From assembly GCF_014652575.1 (NCBI RefSeq), contig NZ_BMZB01000002.1, forward strand, positions 329,482 through 393,481: 64,000 bases of DNA, in the 5' to 3' direction. The notes under the pieces were generated by a model. It made no database searches. It saw only the letters and a list, made by a program, of their open reading frames with translations, and was not told the origin of the DNA. The stretch's first letter is position 1, and each line of letters begins with the position of its first letter. The stretch comes from Asticcacaulis endophyticus. Its GTDB lineage: Bacteria; Pseudomonadota; Alphaproteobacteria; Caulobacterales; Caulobacteraceae. A program made the position numbers and the translations under genes. Positions 17,554-58,859 of this stretch are shown in pieces.

Positions 17554-18339
17554 TTAATAACTCTCCCCGATGATCTGGCCGTAGTTGATGACCTTGACGG
17601 CGTGGTCGTTTTTACGAACGGCGTTGCCCGCACCGCCGCCGGATCGGCTTAAGGACTGTCCGGCCATACCGGCATTGCCGCCGTTACCGCCCGGATTGCC
17701 CTTGGTGCCGCCAGCACCGCCCCCGGCTATGGTGCCGATGCGGCCTTTGTTGGCGACCTGATTATATTGATCTGTCGGATTGGTGGCTGAACCGGCCTCG
17801 CCTTCGCGACCGTTCGGGAAACCGCCTCCGCCGCCTGATCCGCCAACGCCGCTGCCATTGGCACCGGCACCGCCGCCACCTCCGGCTTTGAGCGAGCCCT
17901 TGGCTGTGACGATGATGTGGATTGGGGCGCGGGCAAAGATGGCATCGCCACCGCGTCCGCCGTCAGAAGCGCCCGGAATATCGCCGCCATTACCGCCGTC
18001 ACCGCCACCACCGTAGACATTGCCGTCGACGATCAGCCACAGTTGGGCGTCCTTTGGCCATTCGCCGGTGTCGATGCCGTGACCACCGCCCGATGCGCCC
18101 AAGATATTGGTCTTGGCGGGCACGACAAAGGCAAAGCTGACCGGACTTTGGCCGGTGTAGCCTGACTTGTCGGCCAGAGCGCGCAGATTGGTGCGGCGGT
18201 TAGCGATGTCCGTGATCTGAATGACCTTGGTGTTGTCATCAGGCATGACGGGCGGCATAGCGGGCGCTGCCTGCCCCCATGAGACGGCGGGCAGGAGAGA
18301 CAGGGCCGCCCCCGCCATGATAAACCTGCGCCGGATCAT
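17554..18339 (-). CDS. Secreted glycine-rich protein
   Basis: This is a 261-residue protein with a signal peptide carrying basic residues (MIRRRFIMAGAALSLLPAVS). From about residue 95 it is dominated by Gly-rich stretches (GGGGDGGNGGDIPGASDGG and similar). Such Gly-rich domains often form collagen-like or polyglycine-sandwich adhesin structures, but no domain name can be given with certainty. Its ATG overlaps the stop of the upstream Svx-like gene as ATGA, so translation is coupled. It is the third gene of the GH127 - Svx-like - Gly-rich operon and may form a secreted partner of the protease. Confidence 0.65.
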   Translation of the reverse strand: MIRRRFIMAGAALSLLPAVSWGQAAPAMPPVMPDDNTKVIQITDIANRRTNLRALADKSGYTGQSPVSFAFVVPAKTNILGASGGGHGIDTGEWPKDAQLWLIVDGNVYGGGGDGGNGGDIPGASDGGRGGDAIFARAPIHIIVTAKGSLKAGGGGGAGANGSGVGGSGGGGGFPNGREGEAGSATNPTDQYNQVANKGRIGTIAGGGAGGTKGNPGGNGGNAGMAGQSLSRSGGGAGNAVRKNDHAVKVINYGQIIGESY

Positions 18340-20243
18340 GGACGCCACACAAAATTAGGCTTGGCGGTGACACCGGCAGGTATAGCCGTAAGTTCTGACC
18401 CTTGTTTCGGATCGTTTTGCGACGCCTGATCGACCATGCCGGTATAGACGCCTTTGGAGAGTTTTGGCCCGCCGCGCACTTCGGCATCGCCGTAAATCTG
18501 GGCGGTGCCGGATATCTCCGTGCCGGGTTCAAACTCACCGATGCCCATAAAGGTGGTCTTCACCACCGCATTGTCTTTGACGACGACATTTTTGGAAATA
18601 ACGCTCATGCCACCCACAACCGCATTGTCGGAGATGTCGCCGCCGGTGACGATGGCGTGGTCTTCGATGCGGGCATTGCCTGACACTTTGCCACCCAGAA
18701 CGCGGGCATAGGGGCCGACGTATGCGCTTGAGGCAACATTGGCGGCATTGGCGACCCAGCCGCCGCCATTGGCGTGACGGTGGCCGCTGGCGGTTGGGTT
18801 AGGGGCACCCGCCTGAAAGCCTTCGGGTTTGGCGCCCTCAAGCTGCACCATCCACGGATAGCGGTAGAGCGAGTAATAGGCCTGATCCCATGCGATTTTC
18901 TGGTGGACCTTGGGCGTGCCGACCACGACCATATAGAGCGCCTTATCATCGGCCTTGACGGGGAAGATCATGTCACCTTCCGCGCCATCGACGGCGGGGC
19001 TGATGCGTGATTTGCCGTCCGCACCAATCGCCACCACGCCCCAACGCCAGTCGGAATTGGGATCAGCGACCGTGGCCGGTTCGTTATTCAGGCCGGGCAG
19101 GGTTGAGGCCGCTTTATCCTGCACCACGCCGCGGAAGGTGACGGTGACGCGGGTCGCCCCGGCATCTGGGTAAAGCCTGACCAAATTATAGCCCCAGCGC
19201 TGCGGTGCCCATAATTCTGGCACGGCAAAGCGGCCACCCGCCAGATCGATCGGATCAAGCTGGGTGACCCTGAGCGCGCGCTGACCGTCGCGGCTGTCGT
19301 ATGAGCCATATGAGTTGCGGTAAACTGCGCCCTGATCGCTGCCATCGGGATTGATATAGTCCCAGTTGACATTGCTCAGCGCCCAGTTGCCGAAGACAGT
19401 GTTAAGCTCATCAATCGTCCATTTTTGATTACGCATCAGGATCGCAAAAACGTCTTCCTCAAGGTAGCCTGACTGGCCCGTGTCGATGGCGCCGGTCCAG
19501 ATGTTATTGACGGCCTCATAGCCGTATTCGTTTTTCAGGTACTCCAGGAACTGCCAGTTGCAGTACCGGTCGCGGGTCGAGCCGTAATAGAGGTGCGGGA
19601 AGTTGACCAGCATTTCCGAGCAATGGACGTTGGAACGAAACTCCGGCAACTGATGGGTGATCCAGTTGGCGTGGCTTTCCCACAGCCAGCCGACATAGGG
19701 CGAATCGCGCAGGCCCCGCGTTGATCCTTGCAGGCCGTGGGCGAATTCGTGGGCCAGTCCCCAGTTGTCTTTCAGCGACAACGGGTGAATCCACATGCCC
19801 ATGTCGCGGTCGCCGGTCGGGCCGCCCGATAACGCAAACGACGGATCAAGGTTGATATTGGCCTTGCCCTTAACAGTGGTGTCGCAATAGGGCGTCGGGA
19901 ACTTAATCGGGCCCATATAGGCGGTCCAGATCTGCTCCAGCTTTTGACCGGCGGCGACCGCATCATTCATGTTGACCGTATCGCCCTTCCAGCGGAAGGC
20001 GTAGTGCGCGGTCTCATATCTGACGGCGGCTTCGTCAGGCGTGCCGGAGACAACCTTATAGTCACCCACCACGCAGCCGCTGGCGTCTACTGGCGGGTTG
20101 GTTGGCGGCGGGGTAGTCGGTGGTGTAACCGGCGGGGTTTGGGCCGAGGCTGATCCACCACCGCCACCGCAGGCTGACAGGGTAAGAGACAGTGACAGAC
20201 AAAGCGCAATCGTAGAGGCGCTATGGTGCAGGGTGCGGATCAT
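18336..20243 (-). CDS. Svx/AvrXca-like secreted metallopeptidase
   Basis: This is a 635-residue predicted lipoprotein (lipobox LTLSAC) with a Gly- and Pro/Thr-rich linker (TPPVTPPTTPPPTNPPVD). The catalytic region resembles DUF6055 proteins, the group of Xanthomonas AvrXca and Pectobacterium Svx. It has the zinc motif His165-Glu166-Phe-Ala-His169 in GLAHEFAHGLQG and a likely third ligand Glu189 in WLWESHANW, the gluzincin arrangement. A C-terminal region (about residues 505-585) shows hexapeptide-like repeats (VSGNARIEDHAIVTGGDISD), suggesting a left-handed beta-helix. As I recall, Pectobacterium Svx has been linked to plant extensins as substrates; that fits the hydroxyproline genes here. 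It is the second gene of an operon led by a GH127 enzyme. Confidence 0.75.
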   Translation of the reverse strand: MIRTLHHSASTIALCLSLSLTLSACGGGGGSASAQTPPVTPPTTPPPTNPPVDASGCVVGDYKVVSGTPDEAAVRYETAHYAFRWKGDTVNMNDAVAAGQKLEQIWTAYMGPIKFPTPYCDTTVKGKANINLDPSFALSGGPTGDRDMGMWIHPLSLKDNWGLAHEFAHGLQGSTRGLRDSPYVGWLWESHANWITHQLPEFRSNVHCSEMLVNFPHLYYGSTRDRYCNWQFLEYLKNEYGYEAVNNIWTGAIDTGQSGYLEEDVFAILMRNQKWTIDELNTVFGNWALSNVNWDYINPDGSDQGAVYRNSYGSYDSRDGQRALRVTQLDPIDLAGGRFAVPELWAPQRWGYNLVRLYPDAGATRVTVTFRGVVQDKAASTLPGLNNEPATVADPNSDWRWGVVAIGADGKSRISPAVDGAEGDMIFPVKADDKALYMVVVGTPKVHQKIAWDQAYYSLYRYPWMVQLEGAKPEGFQAGAPNPTASGHRHANGGGWVANAANVASSAYVGPYARVLGGKVSGNARIEDHAIVTGGDISDNAVVGGMSVISKNVVVKDNAVVKTTFMGIGEFEPGTEISGTAQIYGDAEVRGGPKLSKGVYTGMVDQASQNDPKQGSELTAIPAGVTAKPNFVWRP

Positions 20244-20264
20244 GTTCGGATTCCTGAGTGTGAA

Positions 20265-22631
20265 TTATTTGGCGGTGAACAACAGCATACCAAAGACCAT
20301 GCCGGTCGATCGTCCGCCGGACGGTTGCAGACGGATCAGCACCTGCGACTTGCCCTTGGTGAAGCGTTCCGGCACCGGATATTGCTCATCGAAGAACTCA
20401 CCGGGTTTCGGGGCCGTCGCATGGGTGACGGTCGTCAGCTTTTCACCGTCGATCAGGATATCGTATTGGCGGCGGTCATCGCCCCAGTAGCTGGCCTGAA
20501 GGATCAGCGGCACATCGGGACGCACCTTCATGGTGAACTGCATGAAGCCGCCCTGACGGGCATCGCGGCCATAGCGGCCACGATAGCTGCCCGGCCAGGA
20601 CACGTCGGATTCGAGATTATGGTCACGTTCCGGCTGCATTTCACCGAGGTGCATGACATCGACTGAGCGCGCCGCCAGGTCTTTCAGGCGGGCCTGTTCA
20701 GCGAGGAAGGCGGCTTCTTCGACCTTCCACTGGGCTTCGTCGAAGTTCTTGAAATAGACGGCGCTGCGGCGCTCATACTGGCTGTAGAATGGCACGAGGT
20801 TAAGCTCAGCCGGACGGCCGGAGCCTTCGGTGCGGAAGTGCGCTTTTTCAATCGCCACCGGCTTGATGGTCGCGATCAGGTCGTTGGCCACCAAGGCCGG
20901 TTCGGTGCCCTTGAACTCGGTTTCCACCGGCCCCAGATCACCGGCCAGAACCAGCGGGCCGTACAGGATGGCGCCGACCTTGGCGTCGTCGGTGGTGGCC
21001 TCAAAGCGCAGATCGAGCGGCAGGGTGAGGGTGGCCGAATCGCCCGCCGTCCACACGCGGTCGATGACCAGATAGCCGCCATCACGGGTGGCCTTGGCGG
21101 GCTTACCATTGACCGTAACCTCTGCCGATTTCGCCCAGCCCGGCACACGCAGGGCCAGCTTAAACCGTGTCGGGCGGCGGATCGAACTGACCGTCAGTTT
21201 CGAGGCACCGTCATAAGGATAGCGGGTATCGAGCGTTATCTGCGCGTTCTTAGCCGCCCACTTGGCAGTCGATGGGATGTAGAGGTTGACGAACAGGGCG
21301 TCTCCTCCCTCCCAGAAGATCGATTCCCCGTGCTTGGCGTGGCTTTCCATGCCGGTGCCGTGGCAGCAGGTCCAGTTATCGAACGGGCTGGAGAAGCCGC
21401 GCTCCGCCCCGGTAAACAGCGGAGTCATATAGCTGAACATGCCGGTCTTTGGGTTCTGTTGCGACAGGACGTGGTTGAAGTGGGCCCGCTCGAAATAGTC
21501 GAAATAGCTTGAATCCGTGTTCCAGCTATAGAGGCTGCGCGTCAGCTTGAGCATATTGTAAGTGTTGCAATGCTCGCACGTCGCTTCGGTAATGTGTTTT
21601 GAGATGGTGTCGGGCGCGAAGAAATACTCGCGATCAGCATTGCCGCCGATGACATAGGAATGGTGCTTGGTGACCCGCTCCCAGAAGAACGACGTAGCCT
21701 TATGGTGCTCAGGCTTGCCGGTGATTTCATACAGCGTGGCTTCGGCCAGCAGTTTCGGCACCTGAGTATTGGCGTGGTTGCCGCCGAGCTTATCCTCACC
21801 GGCCATTAGCGGGTCGATGATGCGCTTATGGTGCATACGGTTGGCCAGAGCCAGCCAGCGCGGGTTATTGGTGCGGCGGTGAAGCTCGGCAAAGCTGTCG
21901 TTCAGCCCGCCAAATTCGCAGTCGAGCACCTTTTGGACCTGCTCATCGTTGAGCGCCGCAAAGACTTTATCGATATAGACGCCCAGCTTTTCGCCGACAT
22001 AGAGGCCCTTATTGATGCCGCAAAAGGTCTGCGCATCGAACAGGCCGCCATAAAGCTTATGCCAGTTATAGAGCGGCACCCAGCAGCCGTTAAGATCAAA
22101 GCCGGCCGAGCGGATATCGCCGGCCATGATTTCGGGGAAGATTTCCTTGCCGTCAACGACCGTGCCGTCCTTACGCTTACGGGTGAAGCCGGCGACATAG
22201 CCGTCGCCCTGCATGCCCTGAATTAGCGCCAGTTCGTCAATGATATAGACGGCGCGGGTCTTAAACTCGGGATTGCCGGTCGAGGCATACATTAAGGAGA
22301 TGGCCGACAGATAATGCCCCAGGCTGTGACCGGCGATAGTGTCGCGCTCCCACCCGCCGTAGATTTCGGCTTTCGGTGTCAGGCCCGCACCCTTGCGGTA
22401 GTTATGCAGCAGGCTGTCGGCATTGACCGTCAGCAGGTACTTTTCATTGACATCGACCGCGGTTTTGAAGTCCGAAGCGAGCAACCGCACGTCCGACAGC
22501 GGCAATGACTTTGCCTTTTGTGGCAGTAATTTCGAGGCAGTCTGCGCCATGGCGGGCAGGGCCGTCAGGGCGGTCAAACCGGCGGCTCCGCACAGCAGGC
22601 GGCGGCGGGACGTGAGGGCAAATGAGGGCAT
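20265..22631 (-). CDS. GH127-type beta-L-arabinofuranosidase (first copy)
   Basis: This is a 788-residue secreted glycoside hydrolase of the DUF1680/GH127-GH146 group, which removes beta-L-arabinofuranose by a cysteine-based retaining mechanism. The zinc/catalytic set is visible: CEHC at residues 352-355 and the Cys422-Cys423 pair in WTCCHGTG, the position of the nucleophile and a Zn ligand in Bifidobacterium HypBA1. Glu335 in NADREYF is a candidate acid/base. A signal sequence with RRR and ALTALPAMAQ starts the protein; the Met at 22631 is chosen because an operator sits 25 bases upstream and longer reading frames cross it. It leads the operon with the Svx-like protease. GH146 rather than GH127 is possible. 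Confidence 0.88.
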   Translation of the reverse strand: MPSFALTSRRRLLCGAAGLTALTALPAMAQTASKLLPQKAKSLPLSDVRLLASDFKTAVDVNEKYLLTVNADSLLHNYRKGAGLTPKAEIYGGWERDTIAGHSLGHYLSAISLMYASTGNPEFKTRAVYIIDELALIQGMQGDGYVAGFTRKRKDGTVVDGKEIFPEIMAGDIRSAGFDLNGCWVPLYNWHKLYGGLFDAQTFCGINKGLYVGEKLGVYIDKVFAALNDEQVQKVLDCEFGGLNDSFAELHRRTNNPRWLALANRMHHKRIIDPLMAGEDKLGGNHANTQVPKLLAEATLYEITGKPEHHKATSFFWERVTKHHSYVIGGNADREYFFAPDTISKHITEATCEHCNTYNMLKLTRSLYSWNTDSSYFDYFERAHFNHVLSQQNPKTGMFSYMTPLFTGAERGFSSPFDNWTCCHGTGMESHAKHGESIFWEGGDALFVNLYIPSTAKWAAKNAQITLDTRYPYDGASKLTVSSIRRPTRFKLALRVPGWAKSAEVTVNGKPAKATRDGGYLVIDRVWTAGDSATLTLPLDLRFEATTDDAKVGAILYGPLVLAGDLGPVETEFKGTEPALVANDLIATIKPVAIEKAHFRTEGSGRPAELNLVPFYSQYERRSAVYFKNFDEAQWKVEEAAFLAEQARLKDLAARSVDVMHLGEMQPERDHNLESDVSWPGSYRGRYGRDARQGGFMQFTMKVRPDVPLILQASYWGDDRRQYDILIDGEKLTTVTHATAPKPGEFFDEQYPVPERFTKGKSQVLIRLQPSGGRSTGMVFGMLLFTAK

Positions 22632-22657
22632 ATGGGTCTCCAATATTGCGTCAAGTT

Positions 22658-22670
22658 GTATACAATATAC
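22658..22670. promoter_or_regulatory. GntR-type operator, site 1 (GH127/Svx operon)
   Basis: GTATACAATATAC is a perfect GTATA-CAA-TATAC inverted repeat; it also contains most of the 10-bp palindrome TTGTATACAA (22656-22665). It lies about 25 bases before the GH127 start codon, a position suited to repression. Confidence 0.75.
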
Positions 22671-22786: not shown

Positions 22787-22942
22787 GGTATCCGTTGTCG
22801 TGCGCCGCTAAATGCAAAAATGTGCCGCTATAACAGAAGCTTGTTTATTTGAGACGCGGCCTATCATAGGTGAAAACTGCGTGGCATAACCGCAACACTA
22901 TTTGTCCGGTTAATAAAATCGTCACGAAAATGCCCGTATATC

Positions 22943-22960
22943 GTATAAAATATTTTGACG
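22943..22960 (+). promoter_or_regulatory. Operator site 3 with abutting -35 box (TonB receptor)
   Basis: GTATA-AAA-TATTT (22943-22955) runs directly into TTGACG (22955-22960), a Caulobacter-type -35 box. The surrounding 22-24 bases are almost identical to those at 28458-28479 before another unit of the island. The receptor start lies 58 bases downstream; no strong -10 is evident. Confidence 0.65.
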
Positions 22961-23017
22961 TTCCCGGTTTTTCATGGCCTTTTACCCTTCAGGCGACATT
23001 CGCTTAAAGGGAAAATT

Positions 23018-25798
23018 ATGATGCACACGAACAGAAACGCCAGGCGGTGGGTACTGGCGGCCACTGGGTTGATTGCCGCAGTTATCAGCGCGCCCGCGAT
23101 TGCTCAAGAAGTTACAGCCACGACCGACGCGCCGACTGCCGCTGAGGCCGAAGAGCTTGAAACCGTCGTCGTTAAGGGCCTGCGTAAGAGCCTTCAGTCG
23201 GCCGTCAACAAAAAGCGCCGCGCCGCGCAAATCGTTGACGCGATCGACGCCGAAGACGCCGGTAAGCTGCCGGACAACAACGTCACCGAAGCTATTTCGC
23301 GTATCACCGGCGTGCAGATCACGCGCGCCCGCGGTGAAGGCGGCGAGGTCATGATTCGCGGCATGAGCGATGTTCAGACAACTCTGAACGGCAGCCCTAA
23401 CAATGCGGGTGTCGGTCGTGCGGCGTCACTCAATGATATTCCCGCTGAACTTTTGAAATCGGTTCAGGTCTACAAAACCCGCACCGCTGATCAGGTCGAA
23501 GGCGGCATCGCCGGTACGGTCAACGTCGATCTGCGTCGTCCTTTGGATCTGAAGAAGGGCTGGACCCTGGCTGGCAGCGTCCGTAATGTTTACGGCAGCA
23601 TTGGCGATACGGAAAGCCCTTACGGCAGTGCGCTTATTGCCAAGCGTTTCGATACCGAACTCGGCGAGATGGGCTTCCTGCTGAATCTGTCCTATCAGGA
23701 AAATAACTACAACGAACAGTACGTTATCAGCGAGACGCCTGCCCTGTTCTGGTGCTGTAGCACGCAGTGGGACAGCGTACCTGATCAGGCCAATGATATT
23801 TCGATCTACCGCTCACAGTATGGCGTTGAAAGCGGCAAGGTTCGCCGCCCGTCGTTCAATGCTGCATATCAGTGGCGTGTGAATGAATATCTGGACTTTG
23901 TGCTGGAGGCTTCGTCATTCACGTCGAAGGAAAACCGCGCCTATAGTGCTCTGAATACGCGCATCAAGGATAGCCCCGGCGTATTGTCGAACATTGTTTA
24001 CGGTGACGGCCCAGGTACACGCCGCACAATCACCTCGATGACAGTGACTGACCCGGACACGACAGACACCAACGTTCTGCCGGTTGGGCCGACCTCGCGC
24101 GATGATCGTAACGAGGCGGAAAATACCCGTCTTAACTTCGAGACACACTGGCGCAAAGATCGCACGACGATCAACTTCACGGCCTATCGCGATGAGAACA
24201 CCTTCAACAATCAGTGGATGACCCAAACCCTGCGCCTGAACGGGCTGACCGGTTTCAACATCGACATGAATTCGAATAAGGTGCCCGGTGGCGGCCCGTT
24301 CGTCGAGTATCTGGGGGCCTCTCCGGATGACGCCAGCGCCTATGGCCTGAAAGAATTTGAAGACGGCAAGGGTTTTGAAAAGAGCGATGAAACCGTTTTT
24401 GCGCTTGATCTGACCTATCGTCTCAGTGAAGATAAGTTCCTGCGCGCATTCCAGACCGGCTATCGCCGCAGTGAGCGTAACCTGAGCCGTTCCTATGGTT
24501 ATCGTTATGCTGGTTTCAACAATCCGGTGGATATTTCCGATGTGCCGGGCGCTGAACTTGAACTGGTGCAAAGCAATGTCGGCGGCAGTGATGAGCCAAG
24601 CTGGTATCGCATGTCCCGCAAGGGCCTGGTGAGCAATTATGATGCTTTCCGGAATTTCCTGTTCACAGAGCGTGATTATCAAGGCGGTTCGGGCGACTGG
24701 GATGACGTAGTTGTGGACACCGAGCGTCTGCTCGGCAGCTTCGAGTCCAACGAAAAGACAGCCGCTATCTACGCTCAGCTAACCTATGGTTTCAAGATCG
24801 GTGAGATTCCGGTCGACGGTATCATCGGTGCGCGTAACGTACGAACCTGGGGTGACAGCACCACTATGAACCGCCGTAACCAACTGGTTGGCGGTGTCTA
24901 TCAGGAAACGTCCTATGAAGTGACTCAAGAAGGCTCTGGTATGGATTTCATGCCAAATGCCAATGCGGTCATTCACTTCACACCAAAACTGCAATTACGT
25001 CTGGCCTATACGGTCAACATCCAGCGTCCGAATTTCACGGATACCAGCACTTTTGTGTTCTATGACACACTCGGCTGTAACTGTGGCTGGGGCGGTAACC
25101 CGAATCTGCGCCCGAACAAGGAAACGAGCTATGATGCATCGCTCGAATACTATTTCGGTCGTGGCGGCATAGTTTCGGCGGCCGTTTACTCGAAAGAACC
25201 TGATGGCTTTATCATCTACGGCTACGACAACGTAGATTACAACGGTACCAACTACCGTATCGGCCGTCCGGTGAACGCGGCGGGTGGTAAGTTCGAAGGT
25301 ATTGAGTTGAACGCTCAGGGCTTCTTCGAGTTCCTGCCTTCGCCTTGGGATAATTTCGGGGCTCAGGCGAACTTTACGCACAACACCAAGGCTGAGATCC
25401 TCTTTGAATACTACAATGGTCAACCGATCACACAAAGCCAGATCGACACCATTCCGGGCATCTTCGATGCGCCGAACAACTCAAAGAACACCTATAACCT
25501 GGCTCTGTATTACGATACACCGAAGTTCAGCGCCCGCGTGGCTTACAACTATCGTGACACATGGCGGGCGAACCTTGATGGTTACTCGGCCCTGGGTTAC
25601 AGCACCTATTTTGAGCCGACCGAACGTCTTGACGCCGCTATCAACTGGACACCGGTTAAGTACATGACCCTGTCTCTGGAAGGCACAAACCTTACCGAAG
25701 ACATGTCGCAAGCCCATTACGGTGCTGATAACCTGATCCCGCAAGGGGTTCGCGTTGCCGCCCGTACCGTTCAGCTTAGTGCGCGTTTCCGCTACTAA
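23018..25798 (+). CDS. TonB-dependent receptor
   Basis: This is a 926-residue outer-membrane TonB-dependent receptor of the Caulobacter type. It has a signal peptide (WVLAATGLIAAVISAPAIAQ), a probable TonB box in ELETVVVKGLRKSL, and a plug domain with DNNVTEAISRITGVQITRARG and QVEGGIAGTVNVDLRRPLDL. A long beta-barrel region ends in the outer-membrane type C-terminus QLSARFRY. Start at 23018; the neighbouring ATG at 23021 is equally possible. It most likely imports arabino- or galacto-oligosaccharides, or glycopeptides, released by the island's enzymes. It is divergent from the GH127/Svx operon and ends at a strong terminator. Confidence 0.95.
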   Translation: MMHTNRNARRWVLAATGLIAAVISAPAIAQEVTATTDAPTAAEAEELETVVVKGLRKSLQSAVNKKRRAAQIVDAIDAEDAGKLPDNNVTEAISRITGVQITRARGEGGEVMIRGMSDVQTTLNGSPNNAGVGRAASLNDIPAELLKSVQVYKTRTADQVEGGIAGTVNVDLRRPLDLKKGWTLAGSVRNVYGSIGDTESPYGSALIAKRFDTELGEMGFLLNLSYQENNYNEQYVISETPALFWCCSTQWDSVPDQANDISIYRSQYGVESGKVRRPSFNAAYQWRVNEYLDFVLEASSFTSKENRAYSALNTRIKDSPGVLSNIVYGDGPGTRRTITSMTVTDPDTTDTNVLPVGPTSRDDRNEAENTRLNFETHWRKDRTTINFTAYRDENTFNNQWMTQTLRLNGLTGFNIDMNSNKVPGGGPFVEYLGASPDDASAYGLKEFEDGKGFEKSDETVFALDLTYRLSEDKFLRAFQTGYRRSERNLSRSYGYRYAGFNNPVDISDVPGAELELVQSNVGGSDEPSWYRMSRKGLVSNYDAFRNFLFTERDYQGGSGDWDDVVVDTERLLGSFESNEKTAAIYAQLTYGFKIGEIPVDGIIGARNVRTWGDSTTMNRRNQLVGGVYQETSYEVTQEGSGMDFMPNANAVIHFTPKLQLRLAYTVNIQRPNFTDTSTFVFYDTLGCNCGWGGNPNLRPNKETSYDASLEYYFGRGGIVSAAVYSKEPDGFIIYGYDNVDYNGTNYRIGRPVNAAGGKFEGIELNAQGFFEFLPSPWDNFGAQANFTHNTKAEILFEYYNGQPITQSQIDTIPGIFDAPNNSKNTYNLALYYDTPKFSARVAYNYRDTWRANLDGYSALGYSTYFEPTERLDAAINWTPVKYMTLSLEGTNLTEDMSQAHYGADNLIPQGVRVAARTVQLSARFRY

Positions 25799-28390: not shown

Positions 28391-28463
28391 GAATATCACC
28401 CTTTTAGGTCGTATGTTTATGACCCTAGGTCTGTGGTGACAATTGTCAATAGCGCGGTATATC

Positions 28464-36477: not shown

Positions 36478-36511
36478 CCGGTTTCCTTTAAGTGCTTTAC
36501 AGATATGTATC

Positions 36512-36524
36512 GTATACAGTATTC
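36512..36524. promoter_or_regulatory. GntR-type operator, site 5 (GH27/GH97)
   Basis: GTATA-CAG-TATTC lies between the divergent GH27 and GH97 genes, 35 and 38 bases from their starts. It matches the island-wide operator with two mismatches in the right arm. Confidence 0.65.
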
Positions 36525-45910: not shown

Positions 45911-45921
45911 GGGGCACCTCA

Positions 45922-45957
45922 TAAAAAAGTTTCTCGATAAGATCGAGAATACTTTTT
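45922..45957 (-). terminator. Terminator or attenuator just before the epimerase gene
   Basis: On the minus strand, TTCTCGAT and ATCGAGAA form a hairpin with a three-base loop, followed by ACTTTTTT, and the ribosome site GAGG comes immediately after. It can end the deaminase transcript or regulate entry into the epimerase gene. Confidence 0.65.
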
Positions 45958-47029: not shown

Positions 47030-47042
47030 ATATACCGTATAC
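47030..47042. promoter_or_regulatory. GntR-type operator, site 9 (hydroxyproline operons)
   Basis: On the minus strand this reads GTATA-CGG-TATAT, one mismatch from the consensus inverted repeat. It lies between the deaminase gene (32 bases from its start) and the dehydrogenase/prolidase operon (40 bases). Confidence 0.7.
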
Positions 47043-47082
47043 TATATGCGATGGTGTAATGCAACACAGATTGGTCGGTTAA

Positions 47083-48309: not shown

Positions 48310-48319
48310 AGGACTAACT

Positions 48320-49532: not shown

Positions 49533-49549
49533 TGTTCGCGGAGGTCGCC

Positions 49550-51914: not shown

Positions 51915-51937
51915 TTGACAATTGTATACAGTATAAT
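51915..51937 (+). promoter_or_regulatory. Operator site 10 within a promoter (GH127-GH43-GH127 / DUF885)
   Basis: TTGACA (51915-51920) is followed by GTATA-CAG-TATAA (51924-51936), which overlaps a TATAAT (51932-51937). The operator lies inside the promoter spacer, so binding should block RNA polymerase. Spacing of 11 bases between boxes is in the range reported for Caulobacter promoters. Confidence 0.65.
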
Positions 51938-51985: not shown

Positions 51986-54400
51986 ATGTCCCGACCCGTT
52001 CTTTTCACCGACCGTCGCGCCCTGTTGCGCGGTGTGGCCGCAACGACCCTGCTGAGCGGTGTGGCCGGACAGGCGCTGTCCGCGCCCGCTGCATTCCCTT
52101 CAACCGCCAGCGCCGTGCCGATGAAGGATGTGCGCCTGCTGCCGTCGCCGTTCCTGAACGCGGTTGAGGTCAATACCAAGTATCTGATGGTACTTGAGCC
52201 TGACCGCCTGCTGCATAACTACCATAAGTTTGCAGGCCTGCCGGTCAAGGGCGAAATCTATGGCGGCTGGGAATCAGACACGATTGCCGGGGAAGCCCTG
52301 GGCCACTATCTGTCGGCTCTGTCGCTGATGTACGCCCAGACGGGCAACACAGAGTGTATTACGCGCATCAACTACATCATTGCCGAACTGAAAAAAGTTC
52401 AGGCCGCCCACGGTGATGGCTATGTTGCGGGCTTTATGCGTAAGCGCAAAGACGGCACGGTCGTGGATGGCAAGGAAATCTTCCCCGAAATCATGGCCGG
52501 TGATATTCGCTCGGCCGGGTTTGACCTCAATGGCTGCTGGGTGCCGTTCTATAACTGGCATAAGCTCTATGCAGGCCTGATGGATGTGCAGGCCCTGACC
52601 GGCAATGATGCGGGTATCCCGATTTTGGTCGGCCTTGGCGGCTACATCGAAAAGGTGTTTGCGGCCCTGAATGACGAGCAGGTTCAAAAGGTTCTGGCCT
52701 GCGAATACGGTGGCATCAACGAATCCTTTGCCGAACTTTATGTGCGCACCAAGGATGCCCGTTGGCTGGCTTTGGCTGAGCGCATCTATGACAACCGCGT
52801 CCTTGATCCGCTGAAAGCCGGTGAGGATAAACTGGCCAATTTCCACGCCAATACCCAGGTGCCAAAGCTGGTCGGGCTGGCGCGGCTTTATGAGATCACC
52901 GGTAAGCCGGAATATCAAAAGGCATCGTCGTTTTTCTGGGAGCGGGTGGTCAACCACCATTCGTTTGCTATTGGTGGTAATGCCGACCGCGAATACTTCT
53001 TCGAGCCGGACACCATTTCGGCCCACATTACCGAGCAGACCTGCGAAAGCTGCAACACCTATAATATGATGAAGCTGACGCGCCATCTCTATAGCTGGTC
53101 GCCGCAGGCCTCCTATTTTGACTATTATGAGCGCGCACACCTGAACCACATTCTGGCGCACCAGCATCCTGAAACCGGCATGTTCACCTATATGATGCCG
53201 CTGATGTCGGGCATGGCGCGGGAATATTCGACCCCGTTTGATTCGTTCTGGTGCTGTGTGCTGTCGGGGATCGAGAGCCATTCCAAGCATGGTGACTCGA
53301 TCTACTGGGAAAGCGGTGATACGCTGTTTGTGAACCTGTTTATCCCCTCTACCCTGAACTGGGCGGCGAAAAAGGCTGAGTTCGAGCTTCTGACTAAGTA
53401 TCCCTATGAGGGCAATATCGCGCTGAAGCTCAAGCGCGTGCAGGGGGCGAAAGCCTTCACCGTCGCGGTGCGGATTCCGGCATGGGCTAAATCCAACACG
53501 CTTTTGGTCAATGGCAAACCGGCGCTGGCTAAAATGGATAAGGGCTATGCCCTGATCACGCGCACATGGCGCTCCGGCGATGTGGTCACGCTTGATCTGC
53601 CGCTTGATCTGCGGTTTGAAGGCACGGCGGGGAATGATAAGGTCGTGGCGCTGATGCGTGGGCCGATGGTTATGGCCGCTGATCTGGGGCCAGCGCCTAA
53701 CAAGGACGAAGACCCGGAATATAAGGGCGATGCACCCGCTCTGGTCGGAGCGGATCTGCTGGCTGGTATTGTGCCGGTATCGGCAACCGAGGCGGTCTAT
53801 AAAACCAATGGTATTGGCCGTCCGGGCGACCTGACGTTCAAGCCGTTCTATGCGCAGTATGAGCGCCGCAACGCCGTCTATTTCAACCGCTATAATGATG
53901 CCGAATGGGCGACGGCTCAGGTCGCCTTCCGCGAAGAGCAGGCCCGTCTTAAGGAACTGGCGGCGCGGTCGGTCGATGTCATGTATCTGGGCGAAATGCA
54001 GCCGGAACGGGATCATAATCTGACGACCGGTGGTAATTCCTATCCGGTCGTTTATCGCGGTCGTAAGGGGCGCGATGCCCGCACCATGGGCTTCTTCCAG
54101 TTTGATATGAAGGTCACCAAAGACGGCAAGGATGCCGGGCCGTTAGTGTTGCAGGCGACCTATTGGGGTTCGGAGTTCAACCGCAGCTTCACGATTGAGA
54201 TCGATGGCACCGTCATCGCCCATGAACGTCTGTCGGGCCGTCAGCCAGGCGACTGGATCGACGTCAGCTACCCGATCCCGCACAACCTGACCAAGAGCAA
54301 ACAAAAGGTCACGGTCAAGTTCAACCCGCAGGAAGGCAAGACCGCCGGGCCTGTGTTCGGCGTGCGTTTGTTCACCACGGCAGCTGCCAAAACGGCTTAA
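51986..54400 (+). CDS. GH127-type beta-L-arabinofuranosidase (second copy)
   Basis: This is an 804-residue exported paralogue of the first GH127 enzyme. Long stretches are shared, for example DGTVVDGKEIFPEIMAGDIR, and both carry NADREYFF and the CxxC/CC pattern. The Zn/catalytic residues are CESC at 353-356 and Cys423-Cys424. After the Cys pair this copy has VLSGIESHSKHG where the first has HGTGMESHAKHG, so the active-site rim differs and a different linkage may be cut. The signal sequence contains DRRALLRGVAA, a possible Tat motif. It is the first gene of a three-gene operon with GH43 and another GH127. Confidence 0.88.
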   Translation: MSRPVLFTDRRALLRGVAATTLLSGVAGQALSAPAAFPSTASAVPMKDVRLLPSPFLNAVEVNTKYLMVLEPDRLLHNYHKFAGLPVKGEIYGGWESDTIAGEALGHYLSALSLMYAQTGNTECITRINYIIAELKKVQAAHGDGYVAGFMRKRKDGTVVDGKEIFPEIMAGDIRSAGFDLNGCWVPFYNWHKLYAGLMDVQALTGNDAGIPILVGLGGYIEKVFAALNDEQVQKVLACEYGGINESFAELYVRTKDARWLALAERIYDNRVLDPLKAGEDKLANFHANTQVPKLVGLARLYEITGKPEYQKASSFFWERVVNHHSFAIGGNADREYFFEPDTISAHITEQTCESCNTYNMMKLTRHLYSWSPQASYFDYYERAHLNHILAHQHPETGMFTYMMPLMSGMAREYSTPFDSFWCCVLSGIESHSKHGDSIYWESGDTLFVNLFIPSTLNWAAKKAEFELLTKYPYEGNIALKLKRVQGAKAFTVAVRIPAWAKSNTLLVNGKPALAKMDKGYALITRTWRSGDVVTLDLPLDLRFEGTAGNDKVVALMRGPMVMAADLGPAPNKDEDPEYKGDAPALVGADLLAGIVPVSATEAVYKTNGIGRPGDLTFKPFYAQYERRNAVYFNRYNDAEWATAQVAFREEQARLKELAARSVDVMYLGEMQPERDHNLTTGGNSYPVVYRGRKGRDARTMGFFQFDMKVTKDGKDAGPLVLQATYWGSEFNRSFTIEIDGTVIAHERLSGRQPGDWIDVSYPIPHNLTKSKQKVTVKFNPQEGKTAGPVFGVRLFTTAAAKTA

Positions 54401-54410: not shown

Positions 54411-55997
54411 ATGAAACGTCTCGCGGCTTTAAGCCTTTTGCCGCTCATTGCGGCGTGCGCGCCCACCGTAGCCCAAACGGCGCTGGAAACCCGTCAGGTC
54501 ACAGCCCCCCATAACCCGATCCTGTCGGACGGAGCGGACTATACGACCGATCCGGCGCCGCTGGTGGTGGGCGATAAGTTCTATATCCTGACCGGCCGCG
54601 ATATGGCGGAACCGGGCGTCAATGACTTCATCATGCCGGAATGGCAGATGCTGGAAACCAGTGACCCCAAGTCGGGCCAGTGGACCCACTATCCGCATTT
54701 TGTTAAGCCCAACGATGTCTTTAAGTGGGCGACACCGGGCCGCGCCTATGCCGCTCAGATCGTGCAGGGGCCGGATAAGAAATTCTATCTCTATGCGCCG
54801 GTGATGCAGCAGGGGTCGACCAACAAGGACGGCTTTGCCATCGGCGTCGCCGTGTCAGACAGCCCGACCGGGCCGTGGGTCGATGCCCATCCGTCAGGGC
54901 CGGTGATCTCGCAGTCCTATCCGGTCGCCAATGACATTCAGAATATTGATCCGACCATATTGGTGGACGAAGATCAGCGCATCTACCTCTATTGGGGCAC
55001 GTTTGGCCGCCTGAAAGGCGTCGAGCTTGAGGCTGACATGGTGACCTTTAAGGGCAAGCCGGTTGATGTGAACACCCTGACCGGTTTCTTTGAGGCCCCG
55101 TGGATTTTCAAGCGCAAGGGCACCTATTACATGGCCTATGCCGGTAATAAGGCCGGGCCGGATTCCGAATGTACCGAAGCCGTTTACTACGCCTGCATCG
55201 CCTATGGCACCGCCAAATCACCATTAGGGCCGTGGACTTACCGCGGCGTGATGCTCGATCCGGTATCGTCAACCACGTCGCATCCCGGTATTGTTGAATA
55301 TAAGGGTGAGTGGTACATCGCCTATCACAATGCCGACGCCAAAAATGGCGGCCATTTCCGCCGTTCGGTCGCCCTCGATAAGTTCACATGGGACGACAGC
55401 GTGTCACCGCCCGCCATTGAATTGGTAGAGACCACCAAGGCCCCGCCACCGGCACCTGTCCCGACCCGCAACTTAGCCCCCGCCGCTCGTATCGTGGCCT
55501 CTAACTCGCCCGTGCCGGTGCAATACTGGATCAAGGCGCTCAATGACGGCAAGGTGCGCGAAGCGCCGCTGCCGCCCGACACTTGGGGCACCTGGTCGCC
55601 CAATAACCCCAAGCAGCAATGGGTAGTGTACCAGTGGGAACAGCCGCTGAAGTTCAATGGTTCACGCCTCTATTTCTGGGGTGATCAGCCCGCCGGTTCC
55701 GGTATTGGTGTCGCGCCGCCCAAGGCCTGGCATCTGGAATACTGGTCGGATACCGACAACAAATGGACGCCGATCAGCGCCCAATATCCGACCGCGACGC
55801 TCAATACTTTCAACGAGGTGGCTTTCCCGACCGTAACTACGCGCTGTCTGCGGGCCGTGTTTGACGCCTCGACTGATGGCAAGTCTTACGCCGCCGTCGC
55901 GGCTCAGGAATGGGAAGCCCTGTACCCCAAGCCGGTGCTGGTCGAAGCGGCCGACACCAAGCTTGCGGCCTCTGCGACCTGCGTCCCGTCCGAATAA
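54411..55997 (+). CDS. GH43 lipoprotein with discoidin-like domain
   Basis: This is a 528-residue predicted lipoprotein (lipobox LIAAC). The GH43 five-blade propeller (residues about 35-340) has the catalytic set Asp47 in YTTDPAPLV, Asp180 in QNIDPTILVD and Glu228 in GFFEAPWIF. A C-terminal beta-sandwich (about 355-515) resembles F5/8 type C/CBM32 modules and matches the N-terminal module of the next gene product. GH43 enzymes are alpha-L-arabinofuranosidases, xylosidases or galactosidases; arabinose removal fits best here. It begins ten bases after the GH127 stop. Confidence 0.88.
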   Translation: MKRLAALSLLPLIAACAPTVAQTALETRQVTAPHNPILSDGADYTTDPAPLVVGDKFYILTGRDMAEPGVNDFIMPEWQMLETSDPKSGQWTHYPHFVKPNDVFKWATPGRAYAAQIVQGPDKKFYLYAPVMQQGSTNKDGFAIGVAVSDSPTGPWVDAHPSGPVISQSYPVANDIQNIDPTILVDEDQRIYLYWGTFGRLKGVELEADMVTFKGKPVDVNTLTGFFEAPWIFKRKGTYYMAYAGNKAGPDSECTEAVYYACIAYGTAKSPLGPWTYRGVMLDPVSSTTSHPGIVEYKGEWYIAYHNADAKNGGHFRRSVALDKFTWDDSVSPPAIELVETTKAPPPAPVPTRNLAPAARIVASNSPVPVQYWIKALNDGKVREAPLPPDTWGTWSPNNPKQQWVVYQWEQPLKFNGSRLYFWGDQPAGSGIGVAPPKAWHLEYWSDTDNKWTPISAQYPTATLNTFNEVAFPTVTTRCLRAVFDASTDGKSYAAVAAQEWEALYPKPVLVEAADTKLAASATCVPSE

Positions 55998-56021: not shown

Positions 56022-58859
56022 ATGACCCGCAAATTTACCGCCGATATCAACCCTCATCTGTGCCAGCCCGATTGCCGCTGCCTTGACCGGCGGGGCTTTC
56101 TGGCGGGTGCTGCGGGCGCGTCTGTGGTTGGCGGGTTAGGGCTTGGGGCCTCATTTGCCTTTGCCGACACAACCGTGGTCAATCTGGCCAAGGTGGCCAC
56201 GCCTTCGACCTCGTTCATGTCCGGTGATGGCAAGCTGACCGCGCTCAATGACGGGGTTGAGCCTAAAAACTCAGCCGACAATGCCGCCACCTCTTACGGT
56301 AACTGGCCCAAGACTGGCACGGAATGGGTGCAGTATGACTGGAGCCAGCCCATCACGACCAACAAAGTCGATGTCTACTGGTGGATCGACGGGCAGGGCG
56401 TGGGCGCACCGAAATCGTGCCGCGTGCTCTACTGGAACGGCAAGGCCTTCGTACCGGTGCCCAACGCCAAAGGTTTGGGCGTCAAGGCCAATGGCTACAA
56501 CACCACCACCTTTGATGAGATCACAACCGACAAACTGCGCCTTGAGATCGTCTCGGACGGTAAGATGTCAACCGGCGTGCTGGAATGGAAGGTCTATAGC
56601 TTTGGCGTCGTGCCGGCGTTCGCGCCGGTCGTGGTCGCCGGTGTTGACCGCACCGTCATCATGGGCGGCAAGACCTATCTGATGGGTAAGGCCGACTGGC
56701 TCAATCCCGGTGCCGAAACGGGCAGTTTGTGGCGTAAGGTCTCCGGTCCCGGTCAGGTCAGCTTTGCCGATGCTCTGTCGGCGGATACGACCGCGACGTT
56801 CTCGGAAACCGGCGACTATGTGCTGGAACTGGCCGCCCATTCCGGTCAGCGGATCACCACCTCACGCCTGCGGGTACGGGCTCAGGCCGCCCCGCCGAAG
56901 GAGCGCCTCGATGTGGTCTATACCCGCCGCTACAGCCTCGACAGTCCGCTGTGGAACGCGCGCGCCAAGTCTTTGATCGTTAACTGGATTCCGCACTGCA
57001 TCAATTACTGTGAGCGCACCGATCTGCCGACGGGGCAGGGCGGTATCGACAACTTCATTGAGGCCGCCAAGGCCAATCGCGGCGAACCGCACGGCCCGCA
57101 TAAGGGCCTTGTCTTCTCGAACGCCTGGGTGCTGCAAACGGTTGAGGCCATCTGTATCGCCCTGATGGTTGACCCGCAAGGCGATGCCGACATGATGAAG
57201 GCGCAAGTCCACATGAAGGCAACGCTGGAGCGCTGGATACCGCCGATTCTAGCCGCGCAGGAATCCGACGGTTACATGCAAACGGCTAAGACACTGGCGC
57301 CACCGGGCGCGTGGGATAAGCGCTGGGACCCTGCCCACCGCGCCGACCACGAAGGCTATATCGCCGGTTATTTCATCGAATCGGCCATCAATCACTACAC
57401 CCTGACCAATGGGCAGGATGTGCGGCTTTATAATGGTGCCAAGAAACTGGCTGACTGCTGGGTCGCTAATGTCGGCCCCGGTAAGATCGAATGGTTCGAT
57501 GGCCACCAGGAGATGGAGCAGGCGCTGGTGCGTTTTGGCCGCTTCGTCAATGACATGGAAGGTAACGGCCGCGGCGATGCCTATATCGCTTTGGCGCGAT
57601 TCCTGCTCGAATCCCGCCAAGGTGGCCATGAATATGACCAGAGCCACCTGCCGCCCGAAAAGCAGTACGAAGCCGTCGGCCATGCCGTCCGCGCCGTTTA
57701 TTCCTATTCCGCTATGGCCGATATTGCCGCCGAAACCGGTGATGTCGATTATCAGAGCGCGGTCATGTCGCTGTGGGACAATATCGTTAATCGCAAATAC
57801 TATGTCACCGGCGGCATAGGCTCAGGCGAAACCGCCGAAGGCTTTGGCGCGGACTATTCTTTGCGCAATAATGCCTACTGCGAATCCTGTTCGTCGGCGG
57901 GGGAAATCTTCTTCCAGTATAAGCTCAATCTTGCCTATCACGACGCCAAGTACGCCGACCTCTATGAGCAGACCATGTATAACGCCCTGCTGGGGGGCAC
58001 CGATCTCAACGGCACCAGCTTTGGCTACACCAATCCGCTCGTGAATACGGAGCGCACCCTGTGGCACGTCTGTCCGTGCTGTGTTGGCAATATTCCGCGC
58101 ACACTTTTGATGGTGCCGACCTGGACCTACGTCAAGGATAAGGCGGGTATCTACGTCAACATGTTCGTCGGCTCAAAGATCGTGGTTGATCGTGTCGCCG
58201 GCACAGATGTTGAGATGGTGCAAAAGACCGATTATCCGTGGAACGGGGCGGTCTCGATCACCGTCAATCCGAAAGAGACCAAAACCTTCACGGTCTATGT
58301 CCGCATCCCGAACCGCAAGACTAGCGATCTCTATACCCTGACTCCGGCGGTCAGTGGCGTGAAATCGTTCAAGGTCAACGGTAAGGCCGTCACGCCGACC
58401 ATCGAAAAAGGCTATGCCGTCGTCACCCGCGAATGGAAAGCCGGTGACCGTATTGAGCTTGACCTGCCAATGGCGCCGCAACGCATCCATGCCGATGAGC
58501 GCATTGAGGCCGATCGAGGCCGGGTGGCGCTGGGCTACGGCCCGCTGGTTTACAATGTCGAAAAAGCCGATCAACCCAATATCGAGCAGGCTTTGAGCGG
58601 TGCGGCCATTAAGGCGGAGTGGCGCGGCGATCTGCTGGGTGGGGTCATGGCCCTGACCGGCAAGTGGCAGGACGGCTCGCCCATGCTGGCGATCCCGAAC
58701 TATGCGCGCATGAACCGGGTGGGTGAAGCGGCGGCTATCGGCAGCGGCGATGTCGACTTTGCGCCCGGTGCGACCACACCGGCGGCTCAGGCGCAGGTCG
58801 GCCCACGGGTGCGGGTGACAGGGTTACAGTCTCAGGTCTGGATACGCGACAAGGTATAA
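56022..58859 (+). CDS. GH127-type enzyme with N-terminal discoidin-like domain (third copy)
   Basis: This is a 945-residue exported enzyme with a twin-arginine signal (LDRRGFLAGAAGASVVGG). An N-terminal beta-sandwich (about residues 45-195) is similar to the C-terminal module of the preceding GH43. The DUF1680/GH127 (alpha/alpha)6 domain follows, with CESC at 620-623 and the CPCC motif at 684-687 in WHVCPCCVGNIPRTL. This third copy is distant from the two others and closer to the HypBA1 pattern (Cys-Cys followed by a Pro/Asn-type segment). It is the last gene of the operon. It probably removes beta-L-arabinofuranose; substrate unproven. Confidence 0.85.
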   Translation: MTRKFTADINPHLCQPDCRCLDRRGFLAGAAGASVVGGLGLGASFAFADTTVVNLAKVATPSTSFMSGDGKLTALNDGVEPKNSADNAATSYGNWPKTGTEWVQYDWSQPITTNKVDVYWWIDGQGVGAPKSCRVLYWNGKAFVPVPNAKGLGVKANGYNTTTFDEITTDKLRLEIVSDGKMSTGVLEWKVYSFGVVPAFAPVVVAGVDRTVIMGGKTYLMGKADWLNPGAETGSLWRKVSGPGQVSFADALSADTTATFSETGDYVLELAAHSGQRITTSRLRVRAQAAPPKERLDVVYTRRYSLDSPLWNARAKSLIVNWIPHCINYCERTDLPTGQGGIDNFIEAAKANRGEPHGPHKGLVFSNAWVLQTVEAICIALMVDPQGDADMMKAQVHMKATLERWIPPILAAQESDGYMQTAKTLAPPGAWDKRWDPAHRADHEGYIAGYFIESAINHYTLTNGQDVRLYNGAKKLADCWVANVGPGKIEWFDGHQEMEQALVRFGRFVNDMEGNGRGDAYIALARFLLESRQGGHEYDQSHLPPEKQYEAVGHAVRAVYSYSAMADIAAETGDVDYQSAVMSLWDNIVNRKYYVTGGIGSGETAEGFGADYSLRNNAYCESCSSAGEIFFQYKLNLAYHDAKYADLYEQTMYNALLGGTDLNGTSFGYTNPLVNTERTLWHVCPCCVGNIPRTLLMVPTWTYVKDKAGIYVNMFVGSKIVVDRVAGTDVEMVQKTDYPWNGAVSITVNPKETKTFTVYVRIPNRKTSDLYTLTPAVSGVKSFKVNGKAVTPTIEKGYAVVTREWKAGDRIELDLPMAPQRIHADERIEADRGRVALGYGPLVYNVEKADQPNIEQALSGAAIKAEWRGDLLGGVMALTGKWQDGSPMLAIPNYARMNRVGEAAAIGSGDVDFAPGATTPAAQAQVGPRVRVTGLQSQVWIRDKV

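What the first reader, a model, noticed from the sequence alone, without database searches (positions are those of the whole stretch)
17554..58859. Candidate complete utilisation system for plant hydroxyproline-rich glycoproteins
Seen: three GH127-type enzymes, GH43, GH27, GH97 and a DUF5695-like protein sit with four proline-tolerant or metallo-type peptidases (Svx-like, S9 DPP, DUF885, M24 prolidase), a TonB receptor, a permease and three successive enzymes of 4-hydroxyproline catabolism. Known: HypBA1-type GH127 enzymes act on Hyp-linked beta-L-arabinooligosaccharides of extensins; 4-hydroxyproline epimerase, D-Hyp dehydrogenase and the deaminase form one pathway. Inference: one locus covers the substrate from sugar coat to amino-acid backbone, degrading both the glycan and the hydroxyproline of extensins or arabinogalactan proteins. 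I know of no described bacterial locus that joins both halves under one operator.
Basis: partly seen in the sequence, partly recalled or inferred. Interest (0 to 1): 0.95.

Follow-up and report, generated by a model that had tools for sequence, protein, structure and literature searches.

The report
Plant glycoprotein-eating gene regulon in Asticcacaulis
A bacterium of the genus Asticcacaulis carries genes, apparently under one shared switch, that look built to strip the sugars from plant hydroxyproline-rich wall proteins, cut the protein and burn the released hydroxyproline, and the combination recurs, rearranged, in several other bacterial groups.

Summary
The window lies in an Asticcacaulis genome. 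Two of the three "GH127" enzymes are nearest GH146; the hydroxyproline (Hyp) epimerase and Svx peptidase pass curated cut-offs. A palindromic operator (ATATCGTATACGATAT), modelled only on Hyp genes of relatives without a linked glycosidase, gives 10 hits in the window against 0.37 expected, all upstream of cluster genes, on both the sugar and amino-acid sides. Elsewhere in the genome it lies before an aldehyde dehydrogenase that fits the missing last Hyp step, and in a second GH146 locus. The association recurs rearranged in Caulobacter, Sphingomonadales and Steroidobacteraceae; in three loci of the last the Hyp oxidase and GH146 genes are 9 nt apart. Betaproteobacterial GH146 loci show neither Hyp genes nor the operator. 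The closest known parallel is the HypR regulon with collagenases; my searches found no plant version. DUF5695, a frequent partner, folds like a Bacteroides polysaccharide lyase. Inferred only: enzyme specificity, inducer, extensin versus arabinogalactan protein. The link is lineage-restricted: 1 of 61 other sampled alphaproteobacterial genomes with the epimerase shows it, and Svx is often absent or more distant.

The parts
17554..18348 (-). 264-aa protein of unknown family, downstream of Svx
   Evidence: No Pfam or NCBIfam hit; homologues near the GH43/GH127 end of L189 and L190
18336..20243 (-). Svx/AvrXca-type gluzincin metallopeptidase; lipoprotein-like signal by eye
   Evidence: NF040510 945 bits vs cut-off 625; HEFAH at residue 165 followed by a Glu
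20265..22631 (-). GH146-type beta-L-arabinofuranosidase (GH146a), start re-assigned to ATG 22631
   Evidence: 5opj best PDB match 3e-134; EHC and CC motif; start
22653..22668 (.). operator AAGTTGTATACAATAT, 30 bp upstream of GH146a (further overlapping hits at 22769 and 22776, 11.2 and 16.2 bits)
   Evidence: 15.9 bits by the matrix made without the window
22938..22953 (.). operator ATATCGTATAAAATAT upstream of the TonB receptor
   Evidence: 20.8 bits; 2 mismatches to the consensus
22955..25798 (+). TonB-dependent receptor
   Evidence: TIGR01782 501 bits vs 310
25875..26873 (-). cupin_8 protein
   Evidence: PF13621
26879..28399 (-). tryptophan-halogenase-family flavoprotein
   Evidence: PF04820
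28459..28474 (.). operator ATATCGTATAAAATAT between halogenase gene and orf182-S9 genes
   Evidence: 20.8 bits; 68 bp from both starts
28535..29083 (+). 182-aa protein of unknown family
   Evidence: no Pfam hit
29096..31384 (+). S9 DPPIV-type peptidase
   Evidence: PF00326, PF00930
34975..36477 (-). GH27 alpha-galactosidase family
   Evidence: PF16499; best PDB matches are alpha-galactosidases 6f4c, 1uas
36507..36522 (.). operator GTATCGTATACAGTAT between GH27 and GH97
   Evidence: 19.5 bits; 38 and 47 bp from starts
36562..38544 (+). GH97
   Evidence: PF10566, PF14508, PF14509
38587..38602 (.). weaker operator AAATCGTATAATTTAT, 215 bp upstream of DUF5695
   Evidence: 11.0 bits
38810..41584 (+). 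DUF5695 protein, candidate carbohydrate-active enzyme
   Evidence: PF18951 1246.7 bits; predicted fold matches 5no8 at E 2.3e-24
41732..43138 (+). APC amino-acid permease
   Evidence: PF13520; best NCBIfam models are amino-acid transporters, below cut-off
43211..43849 (-). GntR/FCD regulator 1 (operator hit 43909, 68 bp upstream)
   Evidence: PF00392+PF07729; 13.0 bits
44085..44741 (-). GntR/FCD regulator 2, likely HypR-like repressor; GTATAC at 44824 about 86 bp upstream (below 11 bits by the matrix)
   Evidence: PF00392+PF07729; homologue in the fetched stretch of 28 of 29 relatives
44891..45922 (-). 4-hydroxyproline 2-epimerase
   Evidence: NF010578 522 bits vs 376; Cys93 and Cys263 in the MCGHGT and SPCGTGT motifs
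46084..46998 (-). DHDPS-family protein, probable pyrroline-4-hydroxy-2-carboxylate deaminase
   Evidence: PF00701; function inferred from context
47032..47047 (.). operator ATACCGTATACTATAT between deaminase and oxidase genes
   Evidence: 23.1 bits; 42 and 43 bp from starts
47083..48309 (+). DAO-family protein, probable cis-4-hydroxy-D-proline oxidase/dehydrogenase
   Evidence: PF01266; D-amino-acid dehydrogenase models below cut-off
48302..49498 (+). M24 Xaa-Pro-type peptidase
   Evidence: PF00557, PF01321
50122..51876 (-). DUF885 protein (putative metallopeptidase)
   Evidence: PF05960 526.8 bits; in 18 of 18 linked and 0 of 11 Hyp-only stretches; peptidase role recalled, not tested
51919..51934 (.). 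operator CAATTGTATACAGTAT between DUF885 and GH146b
   Evidence: 14.6 bits; 51 and 59 bp from starts
51986..54400 (+). GH146-type beta-L-arabinofuranosidase (GH146b)
   Evidence: 5opj 3e-138; ESC and CC motif
54411..55997 (+). GH43, subfamily not assigned
   Evidence: PF04616; 4nov best PDB match
56022..58859 (+). GH127 family protein with F5/8C-like domain
   Evidence: 6ex6 and 4qjy best PDB matches; ESC and CC motif

Best explanation
It is a regulon for eating plant hydroxyproline-rich glycoproteins, most likely extensins. Exported GH43, GH146 and GH127 enzymes take off the Hyp-linked arabinose chains; GH27 (perhaps GH97) takes alpha-galactose off serine; the Svx peptidase cuts the extensin backbone; S9, M24 and DUF885 peptidases trim Pro/Hyp peptides; a TonB receptor and a permease take up products; epimerase, D-Hyp oxidase and deaminase turn Hyp into alpha-ketoglutarate semialdehyde, which an unlinked aldehyde dehydrogenase finishes. 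A HypR-like FCD-GntR repressor binding ATATCGTATACGATAT-type sites controls both halves, with Hyp or a near product as the likely inducer. Shown here: gene content, shared operator sequence, conserved linkage. Inferred: enzyme specificities, cellular locations, which regulator binds, the inducer, the substrate.
For: Gene content. Shared operator: a matrix built from 9 sites of relatives whose Hyp genes have no linked GH127-family gene gives 10 window hits of 11 bits or more; 30 random Markov sequences gave a mean of 0.37, maximum 2; all 10 lie upstream of cluster genes. In the 18 linked relatives hits above the 98th percentile of random segments lie upstream of GH146a 3 of 3, GH97 6 of 7, orf182 5 of 6, GH146b 9 of 17, GH27 5 of 10, DUF885 10 of 23, TonB receptor 4 of 9; recA 0 of 3, alaS 0 of 3. 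Genome-wide 18 sites at up to 3 mismatches, 6 for the reversed pattern; they include one between a KGSADH-like aldehyde dehydrogenase and a divergent aminotransferase gene, and two in a second DUF885|GH146 locus. Named loci: GTATAC within 150 bp before GH146 in 42 of 54 loci outside the Betaproteobacteria, 0 of 24 in them; Hyp genes in 24 of 54 against 0 of 25. Hyp oxidase and GH146 9 nt apart in L223, L224, L228. Linkage 19 of 30 against 1.0 expected. DUF885 in 18 of 18 linked, 0 of 11 Hyp-only stretches. DUF5695: 21 of 22 genomes with it also have the epimerase. Svx beside a GH127-family gene in 14 of 15 Asticcacaulis genomes with Svx.
Against: Sampled genomes are related, so counts are not independent events, and the GTATAC core was picked after looking at the window. 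In one search few or no sites of their own lie before DUF5695 (1 of 11), GntR2 (1 of 18), S9 (2 of 10), cupin (2 of 7), halogenase (3 of 8), permease (0 of 16), M24 (0 of 18), GH43 (0 of 11), GH127c (0 of 4), GntR1 (0 of 4), epimerase (0 of 18); M24, GH43, GH127c and S9 may be served by the site of the gene before them. ABC-F scored 1 of 3, in G089 where it adjoins GH97. In G042, G094, G104 and G099 no GH127-family gene lies within the 25 kb examined (contig end near in G099), and L191-L193 have no exact site before GH146. The aldehyde-dehydrogenase site is absent in 6 of 18 relatives. Svx is missing from 8 of 23 Asticcacaulis genomes and from g22, and lies within 20 kb of the epimerase in 1 of 18 linked relatives. 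Of 61 other alphaproteobacterial genomes with the epimerase, 1 has a GH127-family gene nearby.
Confidence: 0.78

Rival explanations
1. Same regulon, but the main food is arabinogalactan protein (or algal HRGP) rather than extensin; the beta-L-arabinofuranosidases trim AGP side chains.
For: DUF5695, a frequent partner, folds like the polysaccharide lyase BACCELL_00875 (that this enzyme acts on AGP side chains is recalled). A GH146 of Bifidobacterium acts on AGP, and one exo-galactanase there is a GH43 (PMC10850190, passages), so the unassigned GH43 could be one. The second operator-bearing locus holds a GH2. GH97 present.
Against: Svx adjoins a GH127-family gene and P. atrosepticum Svx cleaves extensins (PMC13164431, passages and part 1 of 2 of the discussion). 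No GH30, GH78 or GH79 family turned up among the window proteins scanned.
Confidence: 0.3
2. The shared operator answers to a sugar signal (arabinose or a sugar acid); Hyp genes are co-opted into a glycan regulon.
For: FCD regulators bind many small acids (recalled); alpha-ketoglutarate semialdehyde is also where oxidative arabinose breakdown ends (recalled).
Against: The same operator sits before the deaminase|oxidase pair in 9 of 11 relatives whose Hyp genes lack a linked GH127-family gene, and 10 of those 11 stretches hold a GntR2 homologue.
Confidence: 0.12
3. Unrelated plant-polymer genes and an amino-acid locus happen to be neighbours.
For: SDR, TetR and ABC-F passengers show that the stretch is not pure.
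Against: Recurrence with rearranged order in several genera, shared operator, 9-nt gene pair.
Confidence: 0.03

Closest known systems
HypR regulon of Proteobacteria, with collagenases in Alteromonadales (PMC5343134; its HypR section read, other passages)
   Same: GntR-family control of Hyp catabolic genes, extended to secreted collagenases, proline peptidases and a TonB receptor that free or take up Hyp from a protein
   Different: There the protein is collagen; here the enzymes are glycosidases plus an Svx peptidase, fitting plant glycoproteins. The section read names no glycosidases.
HypBA1/HypBA2/HypAA system of Bifidobacterium longum and Xanthomonas euvesicatoria (PMC6085000; discussion read, passages)
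   Same: GH127/GH146 beta-L-arabinofuranosidase and GH43; a (frameshifted) prolyl oligopeptidase gene adjoins the Xanthomonas genes
   Different: No Hyp catabolism in the text seen; X. euvesicatoria cannot use L-arabinose as carbon source; GH121 (1452 aa in Xanthomonas) has no equal in the window, whose longest ORF is 947 aa
Svx peptidases of Pectobacterium (PMC13164431 and PMC9266454; passages and part of one discussion)
   Same: Svx family with HExxH motif; the 2022 paper lists Asticcacaulis Svx-like proteins with lipoprotein signals
   Different: Described in the text seen as a virulence factor; here paired with a GH127-family gene and an operator shared with Hyp catabolism
Latescibacteria HRGP prediction (PMC4454575; passages)
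   Same: GH127 proposed to act on extensins
   Different: No Hyp pathway or shared operator in the passages seen

Membership tests
HypR regulon | GntR/FCD regulator next to hyp genes | tested here: met
HypR regulon | hypE, hypO, hypD enzymes under a shared site | tested here: met
   epimerase passes its curated cut-off, the other two at Pfam-family level only; operator at 47032 between deaminase and oxidase genes
HypR regulon | hypH (KGSA dehydrogenase) in the regulon | tested here: inconclusive
   ALDH with operator 99 bp upstream; two best NCBIfam models are KGSA/2,5-dioxovalerate dehydrogenases but below cut-offs (500 of 770, 488 of 750); site not in all relatives; a divergent aminotransferase gene shares the site
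HypR regulon | regulator orthologous to S. meliloti HypR, induced by Hyp | not tested
   No HypR sequence was fetched
HypBA1/BA2/AA system | GH127 or GH146 beta-L-arabinofuranosidase with Zn/Cys motif | tested here: met
HypBA1/BA2/AA system | GH121 beta-L-arabinobiosidase present | tested here: not met
   No ORF over 947 aa in the window; the rest of the genome was not searched for it
HypBA1/BA2/AA system | GH43 alpha-L-arabinofuranosidase | tested here: inconclusive
   GH43 of 528 aa, the length given for XeHypAA; subfamily not assigned
Svx peptidases | NF040510 equivalog score and HExxH...E motif | tested here: met
Svx peptidases | cleaves extensin | not testable with these tools
   needs an enzyme assay
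SusCD polysaccharide utilisation locus | SusD lipoprotein beside SusC | tested here: not met
   No SusD family among the locus proteins scanned

The most novel reading that the evidence does not exclude
A plant counterpart of the collagen-HypR regulons, spread over several proteobacterial lineages: free hydroxyproline, sensed by a HypR-like repressor, switches on the enzymes that strip and cut the plant wall glycoprotein it came from, and DUF5695 is a new carbohydrate-active enzyme family acting on that glycoprotein, taking the place of GH121.
Probability: 0.42. Interest if true: 0.85.

Novelty: new variant of a known kind. Interest (0 to 1): 0.75.

Why it matters
In the papers I saw, bacterial breakdown of plant extensins appears in fragments: an arabinosidase set, a virulence peptidase, and Hyp catabolism on its own. 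This locus ties them into one testable regulon, suggests a nutritional role for an Svx-type peptidase, offers a candidate for the last Hyp step through an operator-linked aldehyde dehydrogenase, and points to DUF5695 and DUF885 as uncharacterised partners with a clear substrate hypothesis.

Tried and rejected
Rejected: 'three GH127' (two are nearest GH146); 'one operon' (both strands, divergent promoters); counting SDR, TetR and ABC-F as parts (no matrix hit beside them in the window; kept in 1, 1 and 3 of 18 linked relatives). The looser pattern WYNGTATACNRW is not enriched genome-wide (14 sites, 20 for the reversed control), so the 16-bp form was used. GH127c counts are cross-hits of GH146 and were not used. 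Phmmer of the DHDPS-family protein against the PDB at 1e-40 gave nothing, so its deaminase role rests on context. DUF5695 against the PDB by sequence gave only 5no8 at E 0.03. A class-level check limited the claim: 62 of 385 genomes have the epimerase over cut-off; of the 61 other than this one, 4 have a GH127-family gene over cut-off and 1 of them (G480) has it within 25 kb. DUF5695 in 1 of 289 class genomes, the own one.
Full report
What is there. In the same way two members of genus g22 match Caulobacter records (G116, G091). Two of the three GH127-Pfam proteins match the structure 5opj best and one matches GH127 structures (that 5opj is the GH146 enzyme BT0349 is recalled). All three carry an E-x-C and a Cys-Cys motif, which fits the zinc ligands (Glu, Cys, Cys, Cys) named in PMC10850190 (passages). 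The epimerase has both motif cysteines (Cys93, Cys263); PMC4113996 (passages) says that dehydratases have a Thr in place of the second.

The shared operator. Reading the intergenic stretches showed a GTATAC palindrome. The five exact copies in the 64 kb all lie upstream of cluster genes once the GH146a start is moved to ATG 22631. I then built a matrix only from the deaminase|oxidase promoter of relatives whose Hyp genes have no GH127-family gene within 25 kb on the contig; 9 of 11 such genomes gave a site (in G064 and G099 the contig ends within that distance). This matrix, made without the window, gives 10 window hits of at least 11 bits and 6 of at least 15; 30 random first-order Markov sequences of the window's make-up gave means of 0.37 (maximum 2) and 0. 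The hits lie before GH146a-Svx, the TonB receptor, the halogenase and orf182-S9 genes, GH27|GH97, DUF5695, GntR1, the deaminase|oxidase pair and DUF885|GH146b. The core was chosen after seeing the window, so this tests recurrence, not first discovery. In the 18 linked relatives sites are frequent before GH146a, GH97, orf182, the deaminase and oxidase genes (15 of 18 each), about half before GH146b, GH27, DUF885 and the TonB receptor, and rare or absent before the rest (the full list is under evidence against).

Beyond the window. At up to 3 mismatches the own genome holds 18 sites, 6 for the reversed pattern. Outside the window they include one 99 bp upstream of a 514-aa aldehyde dehydrogenase and also upstream of a divergent DegT-type aminotransferase gene. 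The two best NCBIfam models of the dehydrogenase are alpha-ketoglutaric semialdehyde and 2,5-dioxovalerate dehydrogenases, below their cut-offs. Two more sites lie in a second locus with a TonB receptor, a DUF885|GH146 pair, a GH2 and an alpha/beta hydrolase. Other sites of the 18 were not all examined; one lies by an EamA transporter gene. Of 18 own-genus genomes, 12 have a site of 13 bits or more upstream of the aldehyde dehydrogenase (8 within about 220 bp of the matched start, 4 at 625-655 bp) and 6 do not.

Conservation. In 149 family genomes the epimerase is over cut-off in 30 and PF07944 in 40. They lie within 25 kb in 19 of 30: 14 of 18 in the own genus, 4 of 7 in g22, 1 of 5 others; 1.0 expected, maximum 6 in 20,000 draws. 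Gene order differs between genera. In the fetched stretches around the epimerase of 18 linked and 11 Hyp-only relatives, DUF885 is found in 18 and 0, GH146b in 17 and 0, DUF5695 in 13 and 0, S9 in 13 and 1, GH43 in 11 and 0, GH27 in 10 and 0, permease in 15 and 1, Svx in 1 and 0. DUF5695 occurs in 22 of 149 genomes and 21 of these have the epimerase. Svx is over cut-off in 17 of 149, 15 of them among 23 Asticcacaulis genomes; in 14 of the 15 a GH127-family gene adjoins it (in G099 the GH127 type) and the fifteenth (G133) is at a contig end.

Named loci. A scan with 11 GH146b proteins found 522 relatives and kept the best 80, 79 distinct loci. I sorted them by record title into 25 Oxalobacteraceae and other betaproteobacteria and 54 others. 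GTATAC lies within 150 bp upstream (or 30 bp inside) in 42 of 54 and 0 of 24 (one had too little upstream sequence); elsewhere in the 54 loci there are 78 copies in 1.12 Mb. Hyp genes occur in 24 of 54 and 0 of 25 loci; some loci are cut short by contig ends, and one betaproteobacterial locus (L220) does hold DUF885 and M24 homologues. Several loci come from one genome, so these are loci, not species. In Peristeroidobacter and Steroidobacter (L223, L224, L228) the oxidase gene ends 9 nt before the GH146 start. In L223 the epimerase fits the other 4-hydroxyproline epimerase models best, just below their cut-offs (409 of 450 and 390 of 442), beside DUF5695 and DUF885: the function seems kept although the gene differs. 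I take this as the strongest single piece of evidence.

DUF5695. The AlphaFold2 model (mean pLDDT 77.3, pTM 0.79, 24 sequences) matches the polysaccharide lyase BACCELL_00875 (5no8, E 2.3e-24, TM 0.74 by target and 0.56 by query length, 15% identity). It is probably a carbohydrate-active enzyme; whether lyase or hydrolase, and on which sugar, is open.

Against. The link is not general: 62 of 385 class genomes have the epimerase, and of the 61 others only G480 has a GH127-family gene within 25 kb. Four own-genus genomes (G042, G094, G104, G099) show no such link, and their GH146 and DUF5695 genes lie together on other contigs or far away. Loci L191-L193 have no exact site before GH146, though L191 has a 17.6-bit match some 8.5 kb away. 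Nothing here tests activity or induction.

Literature. The searches listed no paper whose title or abstract joins glycosidases on Hyp-rich glycoproteins to Hyp catabolism; I read only the papers named here. The library holds open-licence papers only. The nearest are the HypR-collagenase regulon (PMC5343134), the Xanthomonas enzymes (PMC6085000) and Svx (PMC13164431; PMC9266454). I judge this a new variant of the HypR-type regulon, most likely for extensin.

Noticed in passing
window 49526-50118: A ribbon-helix-helix plus ParE-type toxin-antitoxin pair sits between the M24 and DUF885 genes.
   Followed up: partly
L154 (own genome C1:1233276-1247276): Second operator-bearing locus: TonB receptor, an 812-aa protein with no Pfam or NCBIfam hit, DUF885|GH146, GH2, alpha/beta hydrolase.
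   Followed up: partly
L162:5651-9769: A 1372-aa protein joins a GH127-family domain to an alpha-L-arabinofuranosidase C-terminal domain.
   Followed up: no
L223:17988-20711: In the Peristeroidobacter locus a class A beta-lactamase-like and an AmpH-like gene lie beside the DUF885 gene.
   Followed up: no
window 26879-28399 and 25875-26873: Tryptophan-halogenase-family and cupin_8 genes lie behind the operator at 28459; their role in a glycoprotein regulon is unexplained.
   Followed up: no
L067-L068, L079-L082, L121-L122: In four Asticcacaulis genomes the Hyp genes lie beside TonB/halogenase/cupin homologues instead of glycosidases; three of the four keep the operator before the deaminase gene.
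   Followed up: partly
window 4487-7758: NAD(P) transhydrogenase genes, then a protoglobin and an M3 peptidase gene, to the left of the locus.
   Followed up: no
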